From contig JANHAI010000012.1 in assembly GCA_024464205.1 (NCBI GenBank), positions 1 through 11,656 of the forward strand: a DNA stretch of 11,656 nt. Direction: 5' to 3'. A model generated the notes under the pieces. That model was not told the DNA's origin. It did not search any database and worked only from the letters and a program-made list of their open reading frames with translations. This document shows, in pieces, positions 2,819 to 11,491 of the stretch (positions within the stretch are counted from its first letter, which is position 1; each line of letters begins with the position of its first letter). The translations under genes were made by a program, and so were the position numbers. This DNA is from Candidatus Methanomethylicia archaeon. Its GTDB lineage: Archaea; Thermoproteota; Methanomethylicia; Methanomethylicales; Methanomethylicaceae.

Positions 2819-3364
2819 CTACGCGTCGAATCCGACCAAGACTGTCCCGAGCTTTGGGTCCTCCAAATTCGCATCCAGCCTTCTCTTAAGATAGGAATCT
2901 GCTGGCGGTGAAGGGCTACCGACCTTGGCTTTGATCCCAAGGATCTCCGGCATCTCGAGGGGGAGTATCAACACTCGCATCTCGCCCTGCCTCTCTCTTA
3001 TTAGCCTCATCTTTTCTTTGTAGAACACCACGTCCCCCGTCACAATGTTGCCGCAAGCCTTCAGCCCCTCGAGCCTCTCCTTGTCCACTACCTGTTCCCC
3101 AATCACCTCGCTACCGCATACGATCTTGATGAGCGAGCACTCTGGCCATTTGAGGTTCATGTCCGTCAAGCAAGCATAGACTCTCTTCTTTGCCAGGGCC
3201 TCCCGCACTCCGACGTTTATCCCCTTGCAGAACCCCATCAAAACGTTGTTTTCTGCCTCCGCTTCGAGCCTCTCGATCTCTTTCACGTCCGATTCCGTGA
3301 GGGGGATGACTTTGAGTATCCCTTTCATGCCACTCATTGCCTTGACAAGCTCATCTTCTGACAT
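2819..3364 (-). CDS. Unrecognised cysteine-containing protein coupled to the RACo-like gene
   Basis: A 181-residue soluble protein that I do not recognise. There is no signal peptide or membrane segment. Five cysteines fall in the first 104 residues (C46, C65, C76, C83, C104), with contexts FCKGIN, YACLTD, PECSL, VCGSE and KACGN. None form a CxxC pair. The N-terminal 40 residues are helical and acidic; the C-terminal half is mixed alpha/beta with a SPSPPADSY loop. The ATG at 3364 overlaps the RACo-like stop by 14 nt, with GTGA 6 nt upstream, so it is translationally coupled as last gene of the operon. The coding composition matches its neighbours. The cysteines might bind a metal, Fe-S cluster or corrinoid, or the protein might be a partner or substrate of the RACo-like ATPase; both are conjecture. 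It may be an uncharacterised methanogen-specific family. Confidence 0.8.
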   Translation of the reverse strand: MSEDELVKAMSGMKGILKVIPLTESDVKEIERLEAEAENNVLMGFCKGINVGVREALAKKRVYACLTDMNLKWPECSLIKIVCGSEVIGEQVVDKERLEGLKACGNIVTGDVVFYKEKMRLIRERQGEMRVLILPLEMPEILGIKAKVGSPSPPADSYLKRRLDANLEDPKLGTVLVGFDA

Positions 3365-5252
3365 ACTTCTTCACAACCTTTGGCGCTTTAATCGAAGAGG
3401 TGGTCTCGGGAAAGTCCTCCAAGCTGCTGTTGGGGAGGTACATGGCATTTATGTACTCCTCAACGAATATCGGCTCAGCTGCAAGCTCAACATACTTCAT
3501 CTTCCTTGCGACCTCTTTCGCCTCCCCCCTCGCATCAAGGGACTTTAGGCACATCCTTGCCCCTGATCCTGCTGTGTTTCCAGTGAACGATATCTTTTCG
3601 AGGGGCATTTCGGGTATCATGCCTATTATCCTGGCGCTTGCGGGATCTATGTAATTTCCGAAAGCACCCGCAATTATTATCTCAGAGAGCTGATCCTTAC
3701 GCATGCCGCTCTTCCTGAGAAGCGTCATGTAGCCTGCATACATCGCCGCTTTTGCCTTCTGGATCTCCCTGACGTCATCCTGCGTAACGACGATGTCCTC
3801 CTTGCCGCTCGACGTCTCCTCTTTCGGCACAAGGAGGAACTCCCTCCCGTTCGGTCCATCCCTTACCCTGTCGCTTACGCCAATCAGTATCCTCCCAGAA
3901 GTGTCCATTATGCCGCTCCTCAACATCTCGGCAACAGAATCTATTATCCCCGAACCGCAAATGCCCCTTGCCTTTTCGTCCTCGATGGTCTTGCAGACGA
4001 CCTCTCCGCTCTCGGTGATCTTGACCTTCTCGATCGCCCCGGTGGCTGCACGCATGCCATTCCTTATGTGCGCCCCCTCAAAAGCTGGGCCAGATGCAGT
4101 CGAGCAGGACCAAATGCCCTCCTTGTTGCCGAGCATCACCTCGGTGTTCGTGCCAACATCCATCAACAGCGTCATCTTTTCCTTCTCGTGCAACCTGGAA
4201 GCCAAAATATCAGCTATCGCGTCAGCGCCAACGAAACCCGCTACGTTGGGAAGCACGTGGACGTTTCCAGATGGGTTGATGCGTATGCCCAAATCCCTTG
4301 CTAAAAAGTCGTTCGCGTTCCCCATGCCTGCAGCGTACGGCGCCAAGCCGAGGCTTTTCACGTCAATGCCAACAAAGAGATGGTGCATCGCCGTGTTGCC
4401 GACTACTACCATCTCATTGACGTCCTCCCGGAGAACCCCTGTTTCGTCGAGCCCTTTCTGGATTAGCTCGTTTATCCCAGCGACTATCGTCTCCTGTACT
4501 TCCTCAAGCTCTCTCGGCCCTTGCGACGCATAGTTAATTCGCGAGATCACGTCCTCGCCGAACCTGATCTGCGGGTTCATTATTCCATCCGCAAATATGA
4601 TCGAGCCGTCGTTCAGATCTACCAAAAAGACAGCCAACTTAGTCGTCCCGATGTCCACGGCGACTCCGTATGAGCTCCTTGTGGTGTCTCCTTTCTGGAT
4701 GTTAACTACCGTCTCATTTGCCAGCAGGGTGGCAGTTACGTTGAATTCGCCCTCCCTCAATATCCTCGGGGCGATCTTGGATAGAATGTAGTCTAGCTTT
4801 GGCTTCTTTCCTGTCTTTGCGGCGATGGCTTGCATCAGCCTCTCGTCGTCTGCCACCAGATCGTGGAGCGTTGGTGGCGGGATCTCGAGAAATAGCTTCT
4901 GGACGTTACTTCTGATCTCCACGCGTGGCTCCTTCCCCATTATGACAAGCCTCTGCCTCCCGACCCTGCTCTGATCAGGAACCTTGACAGTCACGTTTCC
5001 AAGAACCTTTGCCTGGCAAGCTAGCCTGAACCCTTTCGCGATCTTTTCTGGGCTTATCCGCTTCTGCTCCATCACGGTCAAGTCGGAAAGCTTCCCTTCG
5101 ATCAGCTCAACCTGGCACTTGCCACAGTACCCTTTGCCTCCGCAAATGTTGGCGAGATCGACATCGGCATTCATCGCTGCCGTCATGAGCGTGCTGCCTT
5201 CAGCGACTGATGCCCTCTTGCCCTCTGGCAAAAACCTGACCTCAAACGTCAT
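3351..5252 (-). CDS. RACo-like reductive activator: [2Fe-2S] ferredoxin fused to ASKHA ATPase
   Basis: 633 residues from the ATG at 5252, the usual size of acetogen RACo-type activators that use ATP to reduce Co(II) corrinoid proteins to Co(I). Residues 1-95 form a plant-type ferredoxin domain with cluster cysteines C37-x5-C43-x2-C46 and C79. A linker follows, then an ASKHA ATPase domain: phosphate-1 loop VDIGTTKLAV (199-208), second loop MDVGTNTEVM (364-373), SGPAFEGAHIRNGM (387-400), and the C-terminal nucleotide region IIIAGAFGNYIDP (525-537) and FTGNTAGSG (556-564). It lacks the C-terminal 2x[4Fe-4S] domain of methanogen RamA. An ATG at 5300 would add 16 residues, overlap atwA by 47 nt and has no ribosome site. 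The ATG at 5252 is 1 nt after the atwA stop behind GAGGTTGA, and starts exactly where ferredoxin homology begins. Its substrate (methyltransferase corrinoid protein, or the MCR machinery) is unknown. Confidence 0.9.
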   Translation of the reverse strand: MTFEVRFLPEGKRASVAEGSTLMTAAMNADVDLANICGGKGYCGKCQVELIEGKLSDLTVMEQKRISPEKIAKGFRLACQAKVLGNVTVKVPDQSRVGRQRLVIMGKEPRVEIRSNVQKLFLEIPPPTLHDLVADDERLMQAIAAKTGKKPKLDYILSKIAPRILREGEFNVTATLLANETVVNIQKGDTTRSSYGVAVDIGTTKLAVFLVDLNDGSIIFADGIMNPQIRFGEDVISRINYASQGPRELEEVQETIVAGINELIQKGLDETGVLREDVNEMVVVGNTAMHHLFVGIDVKSLGLAPYAAGMGNANDFLARDLGIRINPSGNVHVLPNVAGFVGADAIADILASRLHEKEKMTLLMDVGTNTEVMLGNKEGIWSCSTASGPAFEGAHIRNGMRAATGAIEKVKITESGEVVCKTIEDEKARGICGSGIIDSVAEMLRSGIMDTSGRILIGVSDRVRDGPNGREFLLVPKEETSSGKEDIVVTQDDVREIQKAKAAMYAGYMTLLRKSGMRKDQLSEIIIAGAFGNYIDPASARIIGMIPEMPLEKISFTGNTAGSGARMCLKSLDARGEAKEVARKMKYVELAAEPIFVEEYINAMYLPNSSLEDFPETTSSIKAPKVVKKYVRR

Positions 5253-5253
5253 T

Positions 5254-6921
5254 TCATTCAACCTCGCAGAATCGTCTGATGACTTCTGATGGGTCGCCAT
5301 CCGTTATAACCCTTCCTTCAACGATCAATATTGCCCTGTCTGCTACTTCTTCCACGAAATCAAGTTGGTGACTAACCAGCACAATTGACGGCTTCAACTT
5401 TGATTTGACCATCTTTAGCGAGTTGGCGACAAGCCGCAACGTCAATGGATCAAGATCCCCAAACGGCTCATCCAGCACGATGAGCTTGGGGCTCGATATA
5501 AGCGCAAGGGCAAGGGCAACCCTGATCTTCTCCCCGCCAGAAAGTTCGTAGACATGCCTCCCCAAGAAATCCGTGCTGAGTCCGACAGCCTCCAGGGCGG
5601 TAGTTGCAACGCGCTGAGCTAACACAGGATCTTTTTTCCTGAACAATTCATTCAATATCTCGCTGTTCAGCCCTATCTGTTCAAGCTTTGCTTGCATCTC
5701 GCCATCCGGAAGCTCAGCGACCCTGTGTAGCGCATCCACCGTCTCCTCGCTTATTCCTGACCTCTTCGCCCGCCTCAGCGCCTCCTCGACGATTGAGTAA
5801 TCCTTAATTCCTATCCTGGCAGCGAACAGATCGATTATTTTAGCCCAATGAGGCAGATCGAATTCTTGATGTAGCATCCCTATGTGCCTCCTCGCGTGGA
5901 GGCTCCTCCTACCCAGCTTTCCAAGCGTCACCCATTCGCCTCTGTGGATCATCTTGACCTCTCCGCTGTCAGGCAATTCCAGGCCGGCGAGCATCCTGAG
6001 GATTATTGTTTTGCCCGCACCAGACGGTCCCACTATAGCGGTGATCTCGCCCCTCCTGAACTCGAGGTTGGTCCCCTTCAGCTCGAAGACTTTCCCATAA
6101 GGTATGAGAGTGTAATCCTTCGTCACGCCCTCGAGCTTGAGGACTACGGGGCCACCAATCGAAACCTTCATGATGGGATCCTCCATCCTTGAAAGGAAAG
6201 CCCGCAGCACCTCCTCAGTGTTGCCATCATTAACTATCCTCCCCCTCGACAGAAGCAACGTCCTTTTTGCGAGGCTTCGGTGGATCTCTGGGTTATGCGA
6301 TGCGAAGAGTATTGACATTTTGAATTTCTTGTTTGCCATCTTCAACGCATCGATTAAGGCCTCCCTTGTCGAGGGGCAGGACATTGTCCCCGGCTCGTCC
6401 AAGAGTAGGAGCTTGGGCTTCCTGGCGACCTGCCTTGCCACAATGAGCCTTTGCTTCTCACCCCCGCTCATTATCTCTGCCCAAAGGTCGGCCCTCTCGT
6501 CGAGTCCGACAGCCTTCAAGATCTCGATCGCTCGCTCCTTGTACTCGTTGTACTCCCCTTCGTCTTCGGGGATGCTCTCCTCGCCAAACTCGCTGTATCT
6601 GATTGCCCTGATGATGTTGTCTGCCGCTGTTTCTGGCCAGATTCCGAAGCTCCGCTGAAGCTGTATGGCTGTCTGCTTCTGGAGCCTCAAAAAATCGTCC
6701 TTTGGGGAGGTGGGCATTACAGTCAAGTCCTGGAACCTCACGATGCCCCCATCGAACTCCTCCACGCCGCGCAGCACACGGAGCAGAGTGCTCTTGCCAG
6801 CCCCGCTCTCACCTATTATGCCAACAATTTCCCCCTCATCTATAGAGAAGGTCACTGAATCAAGTGCGCGGATACCGGATTCCCTGTAATTCTTAACGAT
6901 CCCCTCGACGCTCAGCAGCAT
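5254..6921 (-). CDS. atwA: MCR activation component A2, twin ABC ATPase
   Basis: 555 residues with two ABC ATPase domains and no membrane segments, so it is a soluble ATPase rather than a transporter part. NBD1 has Walker A GESGAGKST (37-45), signature MSGGEKQR (151-158), Walker B LLLLDEP (171-177) and switch H209. NBD2 has Walker A GPSGAGKT (298-305), signature LSGGEKIR (460-467), Walker B LIVLDEPFGDLDP (480-492) and H518. The NBD1 D-loop reads GTMSCPS, unlike the canonical form, and NBD2 has about 100 residues between Q-loop and signature; both fit A2. The family supplies ATP hydrolysis for reductive activation of the Ni(II) F430 of MCR. The ATG at 6921 directly follows the mmp7 stop (TAGATG) with GGTGA 5 nt upstream, so expression is coupled to mmp7. 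Confidence 0.96.
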   Translation of the reverse strand: MLLSVEGIVKNYRESGIRALDSVTFSIDEGEIVGIIGESGAGKSTLLRVLRGVEEFDGGIVRFQDLTVMPTSPKDDFLRLQKQTAIQLQRSFGIWPETAADNIIRAIRYSEFGEESIPEDEGEYNEYKERAIEILKAVGLDERADLWAEIMSGGEKQRLIVARQVARKPKLLLLDEPGTMSCPSTREALIDALKMANKKFKMSILFASHNPEIHRSLAKRTLLLSRGRIVNDGNTEEVLRAFLSRMEDPIMKVSIGGPVVLKLEGVTKDYTLIPYGKVFELKGTNLEFRRGEITAIVGPSGAGKTIILRMLAGLELPDSGEVKMIHRGEWVTLGKLGRRSLHARRHIGMLHQEFDLPHWAKIIDLFAARIGIKDYSIVEEALRRAKRSGISEETVDALHRVAELPDGEMQAKLEQIGLNSEILNELFRKKDPVLAQRVATTALEAVGLSTDFLGRHVYELSGGEKIRVALALALISSPKLIVLDEPFGDLDPLTLRLVANSLKMVKSKLKPSIVLVSHQLDFVEEVADRAILIVEGRVITDGDPSEVIRRFCEVE

Positions 6922-7839
6922 CTATTTCACCTTCTGGAGCATTGATTGAGGGTAGATCTTCACGAGCACATAATCCCTCATCAGCGATCTCTTGATCGAT
7001 GCTACATCACCGAGCCTCTTTCCCTGGACTACCATATCTGAGATTCTGTCCTTATACTCTAGATATGGCAGCTTGATCCTAACGCCGTCAATCTTTAGTG
7101 TAACTGGGTTTGGCGAGAGCGCCTCCCTCGCCTCAGGGACTTGCCGCTCCACCTCTTCCTTGACGACGGTCGGCTCAACAACAAGGGGATCCAAATCCAA
7201 CTCCCTCCTCCTCTCCTCGGCGACCTTCCCTGCGAGCTCAGAGACCGACTTCAGCTTGTCGATCATTTCCCCTGTTCTGGCCCTCTCCGGATACCTGCCA
7301 ATCCCCCCCACGTAGCCTTGGCACTCCGGCAAGGAATCCAAATAAGGACCGCCTGTGACTATGACAGGTATCTTAAGGTCCTTGAAAAGCGGTATCTTGA
7401 ATCCCTTTATGCACTGCTCAAAGTTGCCAAGCGTAAACACGGCGATGTCGTGCTCTTCAATGAGCTCCCTCTCTTTGGGGGAGCTATGCACTATCTTCTG
7501 CCCTACACCCCTCGCAAGGCCAAGGATGTTCGTCTTAGCCCCGTGCCTGCGAAGGTTCTCGGCTATGTCGCATGCGGGATGGGGCAGATGGTGCCTTGAA
7601 AGCGTTGGCGCAACAACCGCGACCTCAACCCCTATCAATGGCGCAATCGTGATCTTCCCCTTGACTTCTGCCACTATCCTCTCCAGCCTCCCCAGCTCCT
7701 CCTCTGGGACAGCTAAGTTCATTATGAGGTCGAGCCCAGCCACTGTCTTCTGGACTATGAAGCCCCCGACATCCTCAAGAAAATCTGTTATGAGCTCATG
7801 CTTGTAGAGACCGCCCTCAAAGAGTAGGAACTTAAGCAT
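6922..7839 (-). CDS. mmp7: Methanogenesis marker protein 7, MCR activation complex subunit
   Basis: 305-residue Mmp7 homologue. Family signatures are FEGGLYKHE (8-16), VVAPTLSRHHLPHPACDIAE (75-94), GAKTNILGLARG (100-111), and VIVTGGP (159-165) before the CQGYVGGIGR segment. Three cysteines (C90, C143, C173) and the H83/H84/H87 cluster are candidate ligands. In Methanococcus maripaludis Mmp7 co-purifies with McrC, Mmp17, Mmp3 and A2, and the complex holds large Fe-S clusters on the way to F430; which residues here bind clusters I cannot show. The C-terminal part (215-305) is charged and more variable. The ATG overlaps the mmp17 stop by 8 nt (ATGCTTAA), with a GAGGCGAT-like ribosome site 6 nt upstream. 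Confidence 0.95.
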   Translation of the reverse strand: MLKFLLFEGGLYKHELITDFLEDVGGFIVQKTVAGLDLIMNLAVPEEELGRLERIVAEVKGKITIAPLIGVEVAVVAPTLSRHHLPHPACDIAENLRRHGAKTNILGLARGVGQKIVHSSPKERELIEEHDIAVFTLGNFEQCIKGFKIPLFKDLKIPVIVTGGPYLDSLPECQGYVGGIGRYPERARTGEMIDKLKSVSELAGKVAEERRRELDLDPLVVEPTVVKEEVERQVPEAREALSPNPVTLKIDGVRIKLPYLEYKDRISDMVVQGKRLGDVASIKRSLMRDYVLVKIYPQSMLQKVK

Positions 7840-8407
7840 TGCCCATCGCCTCGATCTTCAATGCTTCTGCCTTCCATTCTTCCTTTATTGGGTCCTCTGC
7901 TGCAATGACCGTAAGCATGTTTTCGCCCCTTTTCACGGATCTTACCCTAAAACCCTCTGGTATGATCCTCGAGGAGAGCTCGCTGATTCTGCTGGAGATG
8001 TCGACAGCCTTCTCCCTTATCTTAATCTGCTGCACCTCTTCTGGCTCAACGCCTTGGACGACTATCTCCATCCTGCCTGCCTGCTCCACCCTTTCCCTGC
8101 CATATTCAGACCAAAGTACCTTCAACGCGTCCCCCAAGTCGATCTCGCTGTCCAGCCTTATCCTGATTGAACCGGTCCTAGCGTCAATGGAAGCAAGCTC
8201 CCCTATGGTGTTTTTCCCGCGAAAGTCCCGGTATCTTATGCTTATAATGAAGAGGGGGATCTCTGGTCTGATGTAAAGGACAATCGTCTCCACACTGCCC
8301 CCTATCCCGAGATCCTCAACGCTCTTCTCAGCGATGTACCGGTACTGATCGCCTCCGACCTTGTCTGAGCTGTCGACTATAATGTTAATTGCTGCCGCCC
8401 TCCTCAA
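7832..8407 (-). CDS. mmp17: Methanogenesis marker protein 17, MCR activation complex subunit
   Basis: 191-residue Mmp17 homologue. Family features are YIRPEIPLFIISIRYR in the first third, the IGELASIDARTGSIRIR strand region, and LWSEYGRERVEQAGRMEI near the middle. The protein contains no cysteine, so it cannot ligate an Fe-S cluster through thiolate and is more likely structural in the activation complex with Mmp7, McrC, Mmp3 and A2. The TTG start at 8407 lies behind GAGGATGA and overlaps mmp6 by 23 nt. An AGGAGG inside the first codons (8399-8404), 9 nt before an in-frame ATT at 8387-8389 where the mmp6 stop also lies, leaves a small chance of a non-canonical start there. Family call is good; exact start uncertain. 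Confidence 0.88.
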   Translation of the reverse strand: MRRAAAINIIVDSSDKVGGDQYRYIAEKSVEDLGIGGSVETIVLYIRPEIPLFIISIRYRDFRGKNTIGELASIDARTGSIRIRLDSEIDLGDALKVLWSEYGRERVEQAGRMEIVVQGVEPEEVQQIKIREKAVDISSRISELSSRIIPEGFRVRSVKRGENMLTVIAAEDPIKEEWKAEALKIEAMGNA

Positions 8408-8801
8408 TCATCCTCTTGATCTTCTCTGCACTGATCTTTTCCCTTAATGGCCTCTCAATGGGTTTGGAATCAGGAGAATCAAGCGCCCTTGCAACATTTT
8501 TAAGCGCCTCCCTCTCGACGCTCAGCATGTGATAGCCTGGCCTCGGGCCTCCGCCCCTTTTTGCCCTGCAGATCCTCTCGTCTCCAATCCTGTACCCTCT
8601 TATTTTGAAGAATACTCGGTTAGGGTCGAGCTTCCTAAGCTCCTCAAGAACTTCCTTCACCCTCCCCTCCTCCCCCTCAACCAAGATGCCATAACAAGTT
8701 TCCTTGGCTTCCACCCCTCCCATCAGGGCCACCTTCTCAGTGAGCATTGAAGGAGTCAGGTTAGAATCTGAGGATAGCACCACGACGTATGTCTTTATCA
8801 T
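8385..8801 (-). CDS. mmp6: Methanogenesis marker protein 6
   Basis: 138-residue Mmp6 homologue of unknown biochemical role, found with the MCR maturation genes of methanogens. Recognition rests on the central block FFKIRGYRIGDERICRAKRG (65-84) followed by GPRPGYHMLSVE (85-96), which is the conserved core of the family. Cysteines are C36 and C78. The N-terminal half looks like a small alpha/beta domain (TYVVVLSSDSN, then YGILVEGEEGRVKEVLEEL). The ATG overlaps the mmp3 stop in the classical ATGA arrangement, so translation is coupled. Membership of the published activation complex is not established for Mmp6; the operon position suggests a linked job. Confidence 0.92.
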   Translation of the reverse strand: MIKTYVVVLSSDSNLTPSMLTEKVALMGGVEAKETCYGILVEGEEGRVKEVLEELRKLDPNRVFFKIRGYRIGDERICRAKRGGGPRPGYHMLSVEREALKNVARALDSPDSKPIERPLREKISAEKIKRMIEEGGSN

Positions 8802-10327
8802 TCGGCAGCCTCCAGCAAATAGACCACATCCCCTTCCTTCAGCCCCTCGAGGATCTCGATGCCCGAGGCCACCTCGCCAATTATGTTCGTCCCGTCAAAG
8901 CCTTCAGCAGTCGGGCCAAACTTGTCGCTCTCGCTGAACCTGACGCCTATCATACCAGTGAACTTTTTAACTGAATTGGTGACGCCCAAGGTACCTGGCC
9001 TCACCTGGCCTGTTGGGGTGTTCTCGGGCATGAGTCCCTTTGCCACATCTTCATCGCCCTTGAAGAGGGCCACTCCCATCTTCGAAGTAGAAAAATACAC
9101 TTTCAATTTTCCGAAGCGCCTTATCTCAAGGCCAGTTACCCTCTTGAAGTATCTGACTGAAGCAGGAGCCCTCTCGTGGAATAGTCTGATCCTTATAACC
9201 CTGTCGGGCTTAATGCCTCTGCACGTGACCTCGCCTTTATGATATATCTCCAGGGTATTCGCCGGCTCATGCTCCACTATTATCGCACTATCGCTGGCAT
9301 CCCCGTCTCTAACCATCTTTATCCCGATCTTCTCCAGCTCGTCCTCCGCCGCCTTCTGCGTCATTCCTGTTATCTCCAGCCTCTTAGGATTTACCTCGAC
9401 TGCTATCATATCGCCAACTTCAGCAGCGTCCGCGAGCTCAATCCCCCTCTTTATCCTGGCGACAAGCGTATGACTCTCAGCCAATGGCGCCCCAGAGATG
9501 TAGACAAAGATCGCTCCCGCCTCAGTTCCGCCATTTCTAACGGTCACCGCTCCCCTCTTCCTTTCGGCCAATTTTTCTGCCTTTAGTGATGTGACGACCA
9601 TCTTCTTGAATGCGATGTACTTGCTGGTCTTGTCAGAAACCATGAACCTGTCTCCCGAGAGTGCATTGTAAAGGTGCTCTCCGCAGAGGGGAGAATCGCC
9701 ATCCAGTTCAATTGCCATTCTTGTGAAGACGCTATCGCCGTCGTTCAACTTTGAATCAAGGCTTGCCTTTGATACGGCCTCAGCCTCTGCCTTTTTTTCA
9801 AGCACAGGCGATATCCTTAGTATGCGATCGCCCATGCCCATGATCTTGAGGAGGTGCTTCCCATAGACCACCTTCCCCATTGCGTGGCATCCTTTGGGGG
9901 AAGAATAATGGCCAGAATGGCTCTTCTTGCTCAGTATCAGATGGGTATTCTCGCCACTGTAACCAGATAGGCTCAGTGTAAACTCGCTCTCCATCAGCTC
10001 GACAACATCCTTCGAAGGCTCGAAGTCGGTTATAAAAGGACCGAAGGCGATCGCGTCCCTCGTTGACCACCTGGCAGCAGCCCCTTCCAGCTTCTTCATA
10101 TGCCTCCGCCACCCTTCAAGAATTGCTTTGCACTCCAGCTTTACGGTGATCCTCCCTCTTGTGGTCTCTATGTCGAAGAGATCTGTTTCGACTCCCTCCT
10201 CCTTTATCCGGTGCTTTACAGCCAATATGCATCCGTCAGGCAATCGGATCCCTGCTTTAGCTAGGGCGTCCTTTATATCCTCGCCTGCCCTCGCCTCTGT
10301 CTTGATCCCATCAACCTCAAGCTCCAA
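8798..10327 (-). CDS. mmp3: Methanogenesis marker protein 3, MCR activation complex subunit
   Basis: 509-residue Mmp3 homologue (UPF0288 type), usual length. The N-terminal domain resembles a ubiquitin/ThiS-like fold (LEVDGIKTEARAGEDIKDAL, then LPDGCILAV). The middle holds SPKGCHAMGKVVYGKHL and SPLCGEHLYNALSGDRFM. The C-terminal about 70 residues (NTPTGQVRPGTLGVTN, FGPTAEGFDGTNIIGEV) resemble a cyclophilin-like barrel, as known for this family. Cysteines C33, C66, C147, C215 and C369 are possible ligands. Mmp3 co-purifies with McrC, Mmp7, Mmp17 and A2 in the complex that reduces MCR F430 using ATP. It is the first gene of the leftward operon. The frame permits a TTG at 10336, but I chose the TTG at 10327 because GGAG lies 9 nt upstream and the family homology starts there. 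The stop overlaps the mmp6 start by 4 nt. Confidence 0.95.
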   Translation of the reverse strand: MELEVDGIKTEARAGEDIKDALAKAGIRLPDGCILAVKHRIKEEGVETDLFDIETTRGRITVKLECKAILEGWRRHMKKLEGAAARWSTRDAIAFGPFITDFEPSKDVVELMESEFTLSLSGYSGENTHLILSKKSHSGHYSSPKGCHAMGKVVYGKHLLKIMGMGDRILRISPVLEKKAEAEAVSKASLDSKLNDGDSVFTRMAIELDGDSPLCGEHLYNALSGDRFMVSDKTSKYIAFKKMVVTSLKAEKLAERKRGAVTVRNGGTEAGAIFVYISGAPLAESHTLVARIKRGIELADAAEVGDMIAVEVNPKRLEITGMTQKAAEDELEKIGIKMVRDGDASDSAIIVEHEPANTLEIYHKGEVTCRGIKPDRVIRIRLFHERAPASVRYFKRVTGLEIRRFGKLKVYFSTSKMGVALFKGDEDVAKGLMPENTPTGQVRPGTLGVTNSVKKFTGMIGVRFSESDKFGPTAEGFDGTNIIGEVASGIEILEGLKEGDVVYLLEAAE

Positions 10328-10344
10328 AAGGGACAACTCCAGTC

Positions 10345-10473: not shown

Positions 10474-10803
10474 ATGCCTGACAAGACTGAAGCGCGCGAA
10501 CTCCAGATATTCCCCAGAAGGCTCATGGACAGCAAAAAGGCTGATGACTTTGTAGCTCTATTGAAGGATATGCCAGAAGTCGAGGAAGTCTTCATTCATG
10601 GGCCATCATATAAGGGAGGGGGTCACATAGTCGGGAGCATAATAGTCCGCGTCCACCCGGATGTTGTCATTTCAGAGACGACTGAGAAGATCAAACCGAT
10701 CTGCGAGCAATACATGCAATTCGGTTTCGACCTCAGGGTGGGTCAATTTACCAAGACAAGACCAACCGTAAAAGACTATGTGACTGGGAAGATGAGAGGG
10801 TGA
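10474..10803 (+). CDS. mcrD: MCR operon protein D, short form
   Basis: 109-residue McrD homologue. McrD is a small accessory protein that binds immature MCR lacking F430 and helps its assembly; it is not part of the active enzyme. Recognisable parts are LQIFPRRLMDSKKADDF (10-26), VFIHGP (39-44), a GSIIVRV strand (54-60) and the C-terminal signature FGFDLRVGQF followed by TKTRPTVKDY (83-102). Many family members have about 140-170 residues; here the loop after the IHGP motif is much reduced. No frameshift is visible and both ends of the family are present, so I read it as a compact variant rather than a broken gene. It is followed by mcrC with 4 nt between stop and start, and the end of mcrD supplies the mcrC ribosome site. 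Confidence 0.88.
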   Translation: MPDKTEARELQIFPRRLMDSKKADDFVALLKDMPEVEEVFIHGPSYKGGGHIVGSIIVRVHPDVVISETTEKIKPICEQYMQFGFDLRVGQFTKTRPTVKDYVTGKMRG

Positions 10804-10807
10804 CCAA

Positions 10808-11491
10808 TTGCAGGATTCCATAGGCAGGGATTGCCAGATCGTTGATTGCCGTGAATCGATGGGCATAGGCGAAGGAGGTGGCCTCGCGCAGCGCGGCACA
10901 ATCTCGGAATCCGAGAGATTTGAAGTGGTCGCTGTGGCAATGTCCCCCTCTAAAAGACATATCACAAAGCCGGTTTGCGAGATAACCTATGGACTCAGGG
11001 AACAGGGAATTAGGACGAGCGTGCTTGTGCTCGAATCTGGCTCAGGGGTGCCTCCAGATTCTCCTTATGGCGGCGCGCCTGGCGGCTCAATGGCCGGCAT
11101 TAACGAGAAAGAGATCTTTCAAGTAAACCGGTTCAAGATCGCATTGTTCCATCTCGGTGGCATAACTGGCCACGTTGTATACAAGGCTAAGGCATTCCTG
11201 CGGTATGCAGACATCCCAACCATAATAGTCTGCGAGGCTCCAGTTGACTACGAAGATTTCGCAAAGGCAGGGATCATTACCCGGCTCGTTAGGCCCCCAC
11301 CTGGAAGGGTCGAATGCGTTGGAGAGATCGTTGATCTGGTCACAGGCGTGGTCAGGGGCGTGAGTTGCCCTAGAGACAAGCTCAATGAGATAATAATAAA
11401 GGTAAAATTCTGGCTCAGTAAGATAGACAGCGGAGAGCTCAAGGTGAGGGGTGGAGCGATTGGCAAAGATATTCATATTCCCGCCGAATAG
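10808..11491 (+). CDS. mcrC: MCR operon protein C, core of the MCR activation complex
   Basis: 227-residue McrC homologue, the subunit that links the activation machinery (Mmp7, Mmp17, Mmp3, A2) to MCR during reduction of F430 nickel to Ni(I). Family motifs are [20 protein letters not shown] (11-30), [17 protein letters not shown] (44-60), [12 protein letters not shown] (116-127), [14 protein letters not shown] (142-155) and [13 protein letters not shown] (184-196). Cysteines C9, C14, C57, C142, C170 and C187 include candidate cluster ligands. About 25 residues beyond the last motif extend the C-terminus slightly. The start is TTG at 10808, supported by GGTGA (10799-10803), which also contains the mcrD stop, 4 nt upstream; no closer ATG gives the conserved N-terminus. 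The 3' end overlaps mmp5 by 32 nt. Confidence 0.95.

What the first reader, a model, noticed from the sequence alone, without database searches (positions are those of the whole stretch)
3351..5252. RACo-type [2Fe-2S]/ASKHA activator embedded in the MCR activation operon
A RACo-like protein starts 1 nt after atwA. RACo and RamA are known to use ATP to reduce Co(II) corrinoid proteins of methyltransferases. Methanogen RamA carries a C-terminal 2x[4Fe-4S] domain; this protein instead has the acetogen-like N-terminal [2Fe-2S] domain (C37, C43, C46, C79). Two readings follow. It could be the corrinoid activator co-expressed with MCR activation, so both low-potential metal centres are recharged together. 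Or it could deliver electrons into the Mmp7/McrC cluster chain. Either would be an unusual coupling of two ATP-driven reductive activation systems.
Basis: partly seen in the sequence, partly recalled or inferred. Interest (0 to 1): 0.75.

Follow-up and report, generated by a model that had tools for sequence, protein, structure and literature searches.

The report
Corrinoid activator in MCR activation operon
A lineage of methane-making archaea keeps the gene for an ATP-driven helper that recharges vitamin-B12-type cofactors inside the operon that recharges its methane-forming nickel enzyme, so two separate repair systems are probably made together.

Summary
On the minus strand, 3351-5252 encodes a complete RACo-type protein: N-terminal [2Fe-2S] domain, linker, middle and C-terminal ASKHA domains. 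It starts 1 nt after atwA, behind Mmp3-Mmp6-Mmp17-Mmp7-AtwA, in a Methanomethylicus-type archaeon. The linkage is fixed: 22 of 22 order genomes with readable flank (one further contig starts inside RACo), while downstream synteny decays. The atwA-linked proteins form one clade. Of 22 homologue loci outside the operon, 13 lie near corrinoid, MtaB, MTTB, MtrH or CdhD genes. Outside the order, RACo-type proteins go with corrinoid proteins (16 of 18 with, 3 of 20 without), not with MCR. Two incomplete Mmp7-bearing genomes and M. jannaschii lack PF14574, and the purified M. maripaludis complex has no RACo. All 23 order genomes have corrinoid proteins, none full-length CdhD, and in 12 this is the only DUF4445 protein found. 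Best reading: the housekeeping ATP-dependent Co(II)-to-Co(I) activator of methyltransferase corrinoid proteins, captured once by the MCR-activation operon. Electron delivery to Mmp7/McrC is not excluded, but only the linkage speaks for it. The protein is a known kind; its fixed place in this operon is the new part.

The parts
3351..5252 (-). RACo-type activator, 633 aa: [2Fe-2S] (C37 C43 C46 C79), linker, middle, ASKHA C-terminal domain; an upstream in-frame ATG at 5300 would give 649 aa
5254..6921 (-). AtwA (component A2, twin ABC ATPase of MCR activation)
   Evidence: best TIGR03269 match, below its equivalog cut-off; conserved position
6922..7839 (-). Mmp7
   Evidence: TIGR03274 387 bits, over cut-off
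7832..8407 (-). Mmp17
   Evidence: TIGR03291 over cut-off
8385..8801 (-). Mmp6
   Evidence: TIGR03272 over cut-off
8798..10336 (-). Mmp3
   Evidence: TIGR03268 494 bits, over cut-off
2819..3364 (-). Orf181, lineage-specific unknown protein whose start overlaps the RACo stop; likely the next gene of the operon
   Evidence: adjacent to RACo in 16 of 18 loci; no family match and no fold match at E <= 0.001
10474..10803 (+). McrD-like, divergent
   Evidence: PF02505 over cut-off, TIGR03260 under cut-off
10808..11491 (+). McrC, divergent
   Evidence: TIGR03264 288 bits, over cut-off

Best explanation
The protein is a RACo-type reductive activator of corrinoid proteins. Its [2Fe-2S] domain takes a low-potential electron. 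Its ASKHA domain binds an oxidised Co(II) corrinoid protein of the methyl-CoM-forming methyltransferases (MtmB-, MtrH- and URO-D-linked sets in the genomes examined) and uses ATP to push the electron onto cobalt, restoring Co(I). It was captured once, before the order radiated, into the Mmp3-6-17-7-AtwA operon that restores Ni(I) F430 in MCR. Both metal centres fail by loss of one electron, so one transcript supplies both repair machines. Shown here: family, intact cluster cysteines and ASKHA motifs, fixed tight linkage, single clade, co-occurrence with corrinoid proteins. Inferred: the activity itself, its substrates, co-transcription.
For: Full RACo architecture and fold; NCBIfam best match AcsV 521 bits, RamA 165 bits, both below the curated cut-offs. 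PF02607 corrinoid proteins in 23 of 23 order genomes. Full-length CdhD in 0 of 23 (one partial 33-bit match, G020) and MtrA in 1 of 23, so methyltransferase corrinoid proteins are the main known corrinoid clients. PF14574 is found only as this gene in 12 of 23 order genomes, 10 of them 80-97% complete. Of nine such genomes examined for MtmB, eight have it, and in G006, G009 and G012 it follows the corrinoid gene. Outside the order (38 genomes) PF14574 against PF02607 is 16/2 versus 3/17 (Fisher p 1e-5); against MCR 3/15 versus 1/19 (p 0.33) (phylogeny ignored). Of 22 homologue loci outside the operon, 13 have a corrinoid protein, MtaB, MTTB, MtrH or CdhD within three genes. The 22 atwA-linked proteins of the tree are one clade, 97/96 support; three database proteins of unknown context also fall in it. 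Linkage 22 of 22; an in-frame start codon overlapping the atwA stop or within 4 nt of it in 20 of 22. With adjacency set at under 350 nt, AtwA-RACo is kept in 17 of 18 (the miss is a cut contig), while the three pairs beyond Orf181 fall to 12, 9 and 5 of 18 (at least one of those misses, L032, is a contig end).
Against: Nine of 22 homologue loci have no corrinoid or methyltransferase gene recognised nearby (not all their neighbours were scanned). G032 has RACo and MCR without a PF02607 match, though RACo is beside MtrH there. The cobalt-ligating Ser398 of bacterial RACo is Ala in all 22 order proteins read, with Ser one position on. None of 18 outside homologues read has Ser398 either; the Ala-Ser pair is in 11 of the 18, but in only 3 of the 10 corrinoid- or methyltransferase-linked ones read, so the order does not look like that subset at this site. 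Corrinoid activation alone does not explain why this gene, rather than RamA, is never separated from atwA.
Confidence: 0.77

Rival explanations
1. The RACo has become a working part of MCR activation: it docks on Mmp7/Mmp17/McrC or AtwA and feeds electrons from its [2Fe-2S] cluster into the L-cluster-like chain, with or without keeping its corrinoid role.
For: Fixed position in 22 of 22 order genomes and overlapping or near-touching genes in 20 of 22, kept as well as the bona fide activation genes. The M. maripaludis study says additional factors might be required for efficient activation (PMC12176620 discussion).
Against: No RACo among the proteins named as co-purified in M. maripaludis (PMC12176620, passages). 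M. jannaschii matches MCR and Mmp7 but not PF14574 (controls). G036 and G038 have Mmp7 but neither PF14574 nor PF02607 (67% and 72% complete). In the three f6 genomes with both, RACo is on another contig (G026, G030) or about 870 kb along the contig (G032). Only 8 of 257 positions conserved in the clade are clade-specific. Reduced ferredoxin is the donor named in the literature seen (PMC3087415; PMC12176620).
Confidence: 0.13
2. An AcsV-type activator of the CODH/ACS corrinoid iron-sulfur protein (CdhDE), the role of acetogen RACo.
For: Closest curated model is AcsV. Three homologues outside the order lie beside CdhD.
Against: Full-length CdhD absent from 23 of 23 order genomes; the two CdhD-linked homologues in the tree branch elsewhere; score far below the AcsV cut-off.
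Confidence: 0.03
3. The linkage is neutral: ordinary slow loss of gene order, with no functional meaning.
For: Archaeal operons can persist passively; Orf181 is also often kept (16 of 18).
Against: Synteny further downstream decays within the same genomes (12, 9 and 5 of 18) while AtwA-RACo never breaks (17 of 17 readable).
Confidence: 0.07

Closest known systems
RACo of Carboxydothermus hydrogenoformans (PDB 3zyy, 4c1n)
   Same: Matches the solved RACo along its length by sequence and fold, with the [2Fe-2S] cysteines and ASKHA motifs
   Different: No CODH/ACS corrinoid partner found in this order; Ser398 cobalt ligand replaced by Ala with Ser at the next position; gene sits in the MCR-activation operon (organism name of 3zyy recalled, not from a call)
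RamA of methanogens (TIGR04270)
   Same: Shared ASKHA core; expected job, Co(II) to Co(I) in methyltransferase corrinoid proteins
   Different: RamA lacks the N-terminal [2Fe-2S] domain and has a C-terminal CxxCxxC motif; in this order it is a separate protein in 11 of 23 genomes, beside mtaB and its corrinoid gene in six Methanosuratincola-genus genomes and beside an MTTB gene in G003
[quoted passage not shown]
   Same: Genes for Mmp3, Mmp7, Mmp17, AtwA and McrC are all in this window
   Different: RACo is not among its named subunits; in this order a RACo gene is the next one in the operon
O-demethylase activating enzyme of A. dehalogenans (PMC6739815, passages)
   Same: [2Fe-2S] ATP-dependent activator of a methyltransferase corrinoid protein, the nearest functional analogue
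   Different: Bacterial; sequence not compared here

Membership tests
RACo/AcsV-type corrinoid activator | Fer2 + RACo linker + middle + C-terminal ASKHA domain in that order | tested here: met
RACo/AcsV-type corrinoid activator | four [2Fe-2S] cysteines | tested here: met
   C37 C43 C46 C79 invariant in 46 sequences; motif in all 22 order proteins read
RACo/AcsV-type corrinoid activator | RACo fold | tested here: met
   model pLDDT 88.7, best PDB matches 3zyy and 4c1n
RACo/AcsV-type corrinoid activator | Ser398 cobalt ligand (shown for bacterial RACo) | tested here: inconclusive
   Ala at that position, Ser next to it, 22 of 22 order proteins; no Ser398 in any of 18 outside homologues read, CdhD-linked ones included, so it does not define the archaeal family
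RACo/AcsV-type corrinoid activator | ATP-dependent reduction of a corrinoid protein | not testable with these tools
   needs biochemistry
AcsV equivalog (NF040756) | score over 800 bits and a CdhDE partner | tested here: not met
   521 bits; full-length CdhD absent
RamA (TIGR04270) | score over 500 bits, C-terminal [4Fe-4S] motifs | tested here: not met
   165 bits; no CxxCxxC
MCR activation complex subunit | encoded with the complex in relatives | tested here: met
   22 of 22 in the order; not in the f6 genomes outside it
MCR activation complex subunit | present wherever the complex is present | tested here: not met
   M. jannaschii control and two incomplete f6 genomes (G036, G038) have Mmp7 without PF14574
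MCR activation complex subunit | physical binding to McrC/Mmp7/AtwA | not testable with these tools
   single-chain prediction only

The most novel reading that the evidence does not exclude
In Methanomethylicales the RACo protein is a shared ATP-driven electron-injection module that docks both on corrinoid proteins and on the MCR activation complex, so one protein supplies low-potential electrons to Co(I) and, through Mmp7/McrC, to Ni(I).
Probability: 0.1. Interest if true: 0.88.

Novelty: new variant of a known kind. Interest (0 to 1): 0.52.

Why it matters
How electrons reach F430 in the cell is not settled: ferredoxin is named as a donor, but the purified M. [quoted passage not shown] PMC3087415 passage). 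In the sample read here, corrinoid activators often sit beside their methyltransferases (13 of 22 loci). An order of methanogens in which the two activators were never seen apart points to joint control of cobalt and nickel reactivation, and offers an electron-donor candidate that can be tested in the cultured Methanosuratincola petrocarbonis. It also gives a probable job to a gene that public records name only as DUF4445, ASKHA domain protein or ferredoxin.

Tried and rejected
CODH/ACS activator: rejected because full-length CdhD is absent from all 23 order genomes. MtrA as client: only G006 has it. RamA under another name: TIGR04270 165 of 500 bits and no C-terminal CxxCxxC. Ser398 as a test of partner: inconclusive. 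Clade-specific residues as a test of a new partner: 8 of 257 conserved positions, spread over the linker, middle and C-terminal regions; weak evidence. Orf181: no family or fold match, so no help with function. TATA-like pattern in the window: uninformative. PF14574 against CdhD outside the order: 11/7 versus 6/14, p 0.10, so CdhD alone explains it less well than corrinoid proteins do.

The neighbour survey is partial. It covers 22 homologue loci, several from the same genome (two each in G025, G027 and G029). Only 30 neighbouring proteins were scanned in Pfam, six of them beside RamA; others were assigned by BLAST groups or by the places, so misses are possible. The tree used 65 rows: of 55 collected proteins, 8 were dropped (fragments and redundant RamA copies), and 18 database proteins without known context were added; no bacterial sequence was put in it on purpose. 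MtmB was searched in 16 of the 23 order genomes. The homologue search was capped at 8000 candidates and listed 120.

Full report
What is there. The window is contig C183 of a 1.17-Mb genome, 78% complete. The named relatives found are Candidatus Methanomethylicus, Methanosuratincola and other Methanomethylicota records. The minus strand carries a tight run Mmp3 - Mmp6 - Mmp17 - Mmp7 - AtwA - RACo - Orf181, with McrD and McrC divergent from it. The RACo starts 1 nt after atwA (ATG at 5252) and its end overlaps the start of Orf181.

Is the linkage real? Of 23 genomes of the order in hand (G000-G022), 22 show AtwA next to RACo; in the 23rd (G019) the contig begins inside RACo. In 20 of those 22 an in-frame start codon overlaps the atwA stop or follows it within 4 nt (G002 and G022 are the exceptions). 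In 18 loci with longer flanks every pair from Mmp3 to RACo is adjacent (under 350 nt) in 17, the one miss being that cut contig. RACo-Orf181 is kept in 16, and the next three downstream pairs in 12, 9 and 5 (some of these misses are gaps only a little over the limit, and L032 ends there). RACo therefore behaves as a fixed member of the operon, not as a chance neighbour.

Whose activator is it? All 23 order genomes match MCR alpha and PF02607, one to nine matches each. None has a full-length CdhD; one, G020, has a partial 33-bit match. Only G006 has MtrA. RamA-type second copies occur in 11 of 23; six of them lie beside MtaB and its corrinoid gene in the Methanosuratincola genus, one (G005) shares a region with them, one (G003) is beside an MTTB gene, and the rest were at contig ends or beside other genes. 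The other 12 genomes, ten of them 80-97% complete, have this RACo as their only PF14574 match and still hold corrinoid proteins. Eight of nine such genomes examined carry MtmB homologues, and in G006, G009 and G012 these follow the corrinoid gene. In those genomes this RACo is the only ATP-dependent corrinoid activator of known type that was found.

Relatives. Of 22 homologue loci outside the operon (one a second copy in the order genome G005), 13 have a corrinoid protein, MtaB, MTTB, MtrH or CdhD within three genes, and 9 show none in the partial scan. Across 38 genomes outside the order, PF14574 occurs in 18; 16 of these have PF02607 and the other two (G032, G035) have CdhD. Of the 20 without it, 3 have PF02607 (p 1e-5). 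The same table against MCR gives p 0.33 (shared ancestry is not corrected for). In a sample of 398 genomes of the phylum 28 match Mmp7: the 23 order members and five of family f6, whose scores fall a little under that model's cut-off. Three of those five have RACo, away from Mmp7 (other contigs in G026 and G030, about 870 kb along the contig in G032); two (G036, G038; 67% and 72% complete) have neither PF14574 nor PF02607. The controls agree: M. jannaschii matches MCR and Mmp7, not PF14574. The tree puts the 22 atwA-linked proteins in one clade (97/96), which also holds three database proteins of unknown context; the corrinoid- and methyltransferase-linked ones lie outside it and RamA far off. 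One capture, then vertical descent, is the simplest history.

Mechanism. Established for RACo and its kin: the [2Fe-2S] cluster supplies an electron and ATP makes reduction of Co(II) to Co(I) possible (PMC4934906, passages; PMC6739815, passages). MCR needs ATP-dependent reduction of F430 with AtwA, McrC, Mmp7, Mmp17 and Mmp3; RACo is not among the proteins named as co-purified in M. maripaludis, and further factors are thought to be missing (PMC12176620, passages and the discussion section). An older review names reduced ferredoxin as the donor (PMC3087415, passages). I infer that the order makes both repair machines from one transcript. That RACo itself feeds the MCR chain cannot be excluded, but only the linkage supports it. 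The cobalt-ligating Ser398 of bacterial RACo is Ala in all 22 order proteins read, with Ser at the next position; none of 18 outside homologues read has Ser398, and the Ala-Ser pair is in 11 of them but in only 3 of the 10 linked to corrinoid or methyltransferase genes. This site does not decide between the readings and leans slightly against plain likeness to the linked subset.

Novelty. Nine searches of the held open-access library listed no paper that by its title, start of abstract or the passages read describes a corrinoid activator in the MCR-activation operon of this order. Subscription papers on the lineage that I recall (its first description in 2016 and its cultivation in 2024) were not seen. 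A Yellowstone study mentions methyltransferases and mtrH near corrinoid genes in this group (PMC10033731, passages). The isolate M. petrocarbonis reduces methanol and monomethylamine (PMC12244365, abstract and passages), so the tests are feasible.

Noticed in passing
window 2819-3364 (-): Orf181: confident model (pLDDT 91.6), invariant PSPP motif, 11 protein clusters found in a word-seeded search, no family match and no PDB fold match at E <= 0.001; follows RACo in 16 of 18 loci but was not found in G008 and G012.
   Followed up: partly
L146:4545-7279, L152:344-3074, L161:275-3030: Tandem pairs of MtmB homologues without an in-frame stop, next to a corrinoid protein, in this order; only one copy each in G002 and G003 has an in-frame TAG. 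A non-pyrrolysine MtmB homologue was recently reported to act on tetramethylammonium and choline (PMC13044021, passages), so these may not act on monomethylamine.
   Followed up: no
L098:7690-11682: In the Methanosuratincola genus the RamA gene lies beside mtaB and its corrinoid gene (methanol), not beside methylamine genes; two genes without Pfam match (198 and 334 aa) lie on its other side.
   Followed up: no
L075:7111-8920: In G030, the best-scoring relative outside the order (50% identity), RACo converges on a FecCD permease and ABC ATPase pair, possibly a corrinoid uptake system.
   Followed up: no
window 8798-10336 (-), residues 4-37 of the protein: The N-terminus of Mmp3 gives a weak Fer2_4 (2Fe-2S) match just below the Pfam cut-off (20.4 against 22.8 bits).
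   Followed up: no
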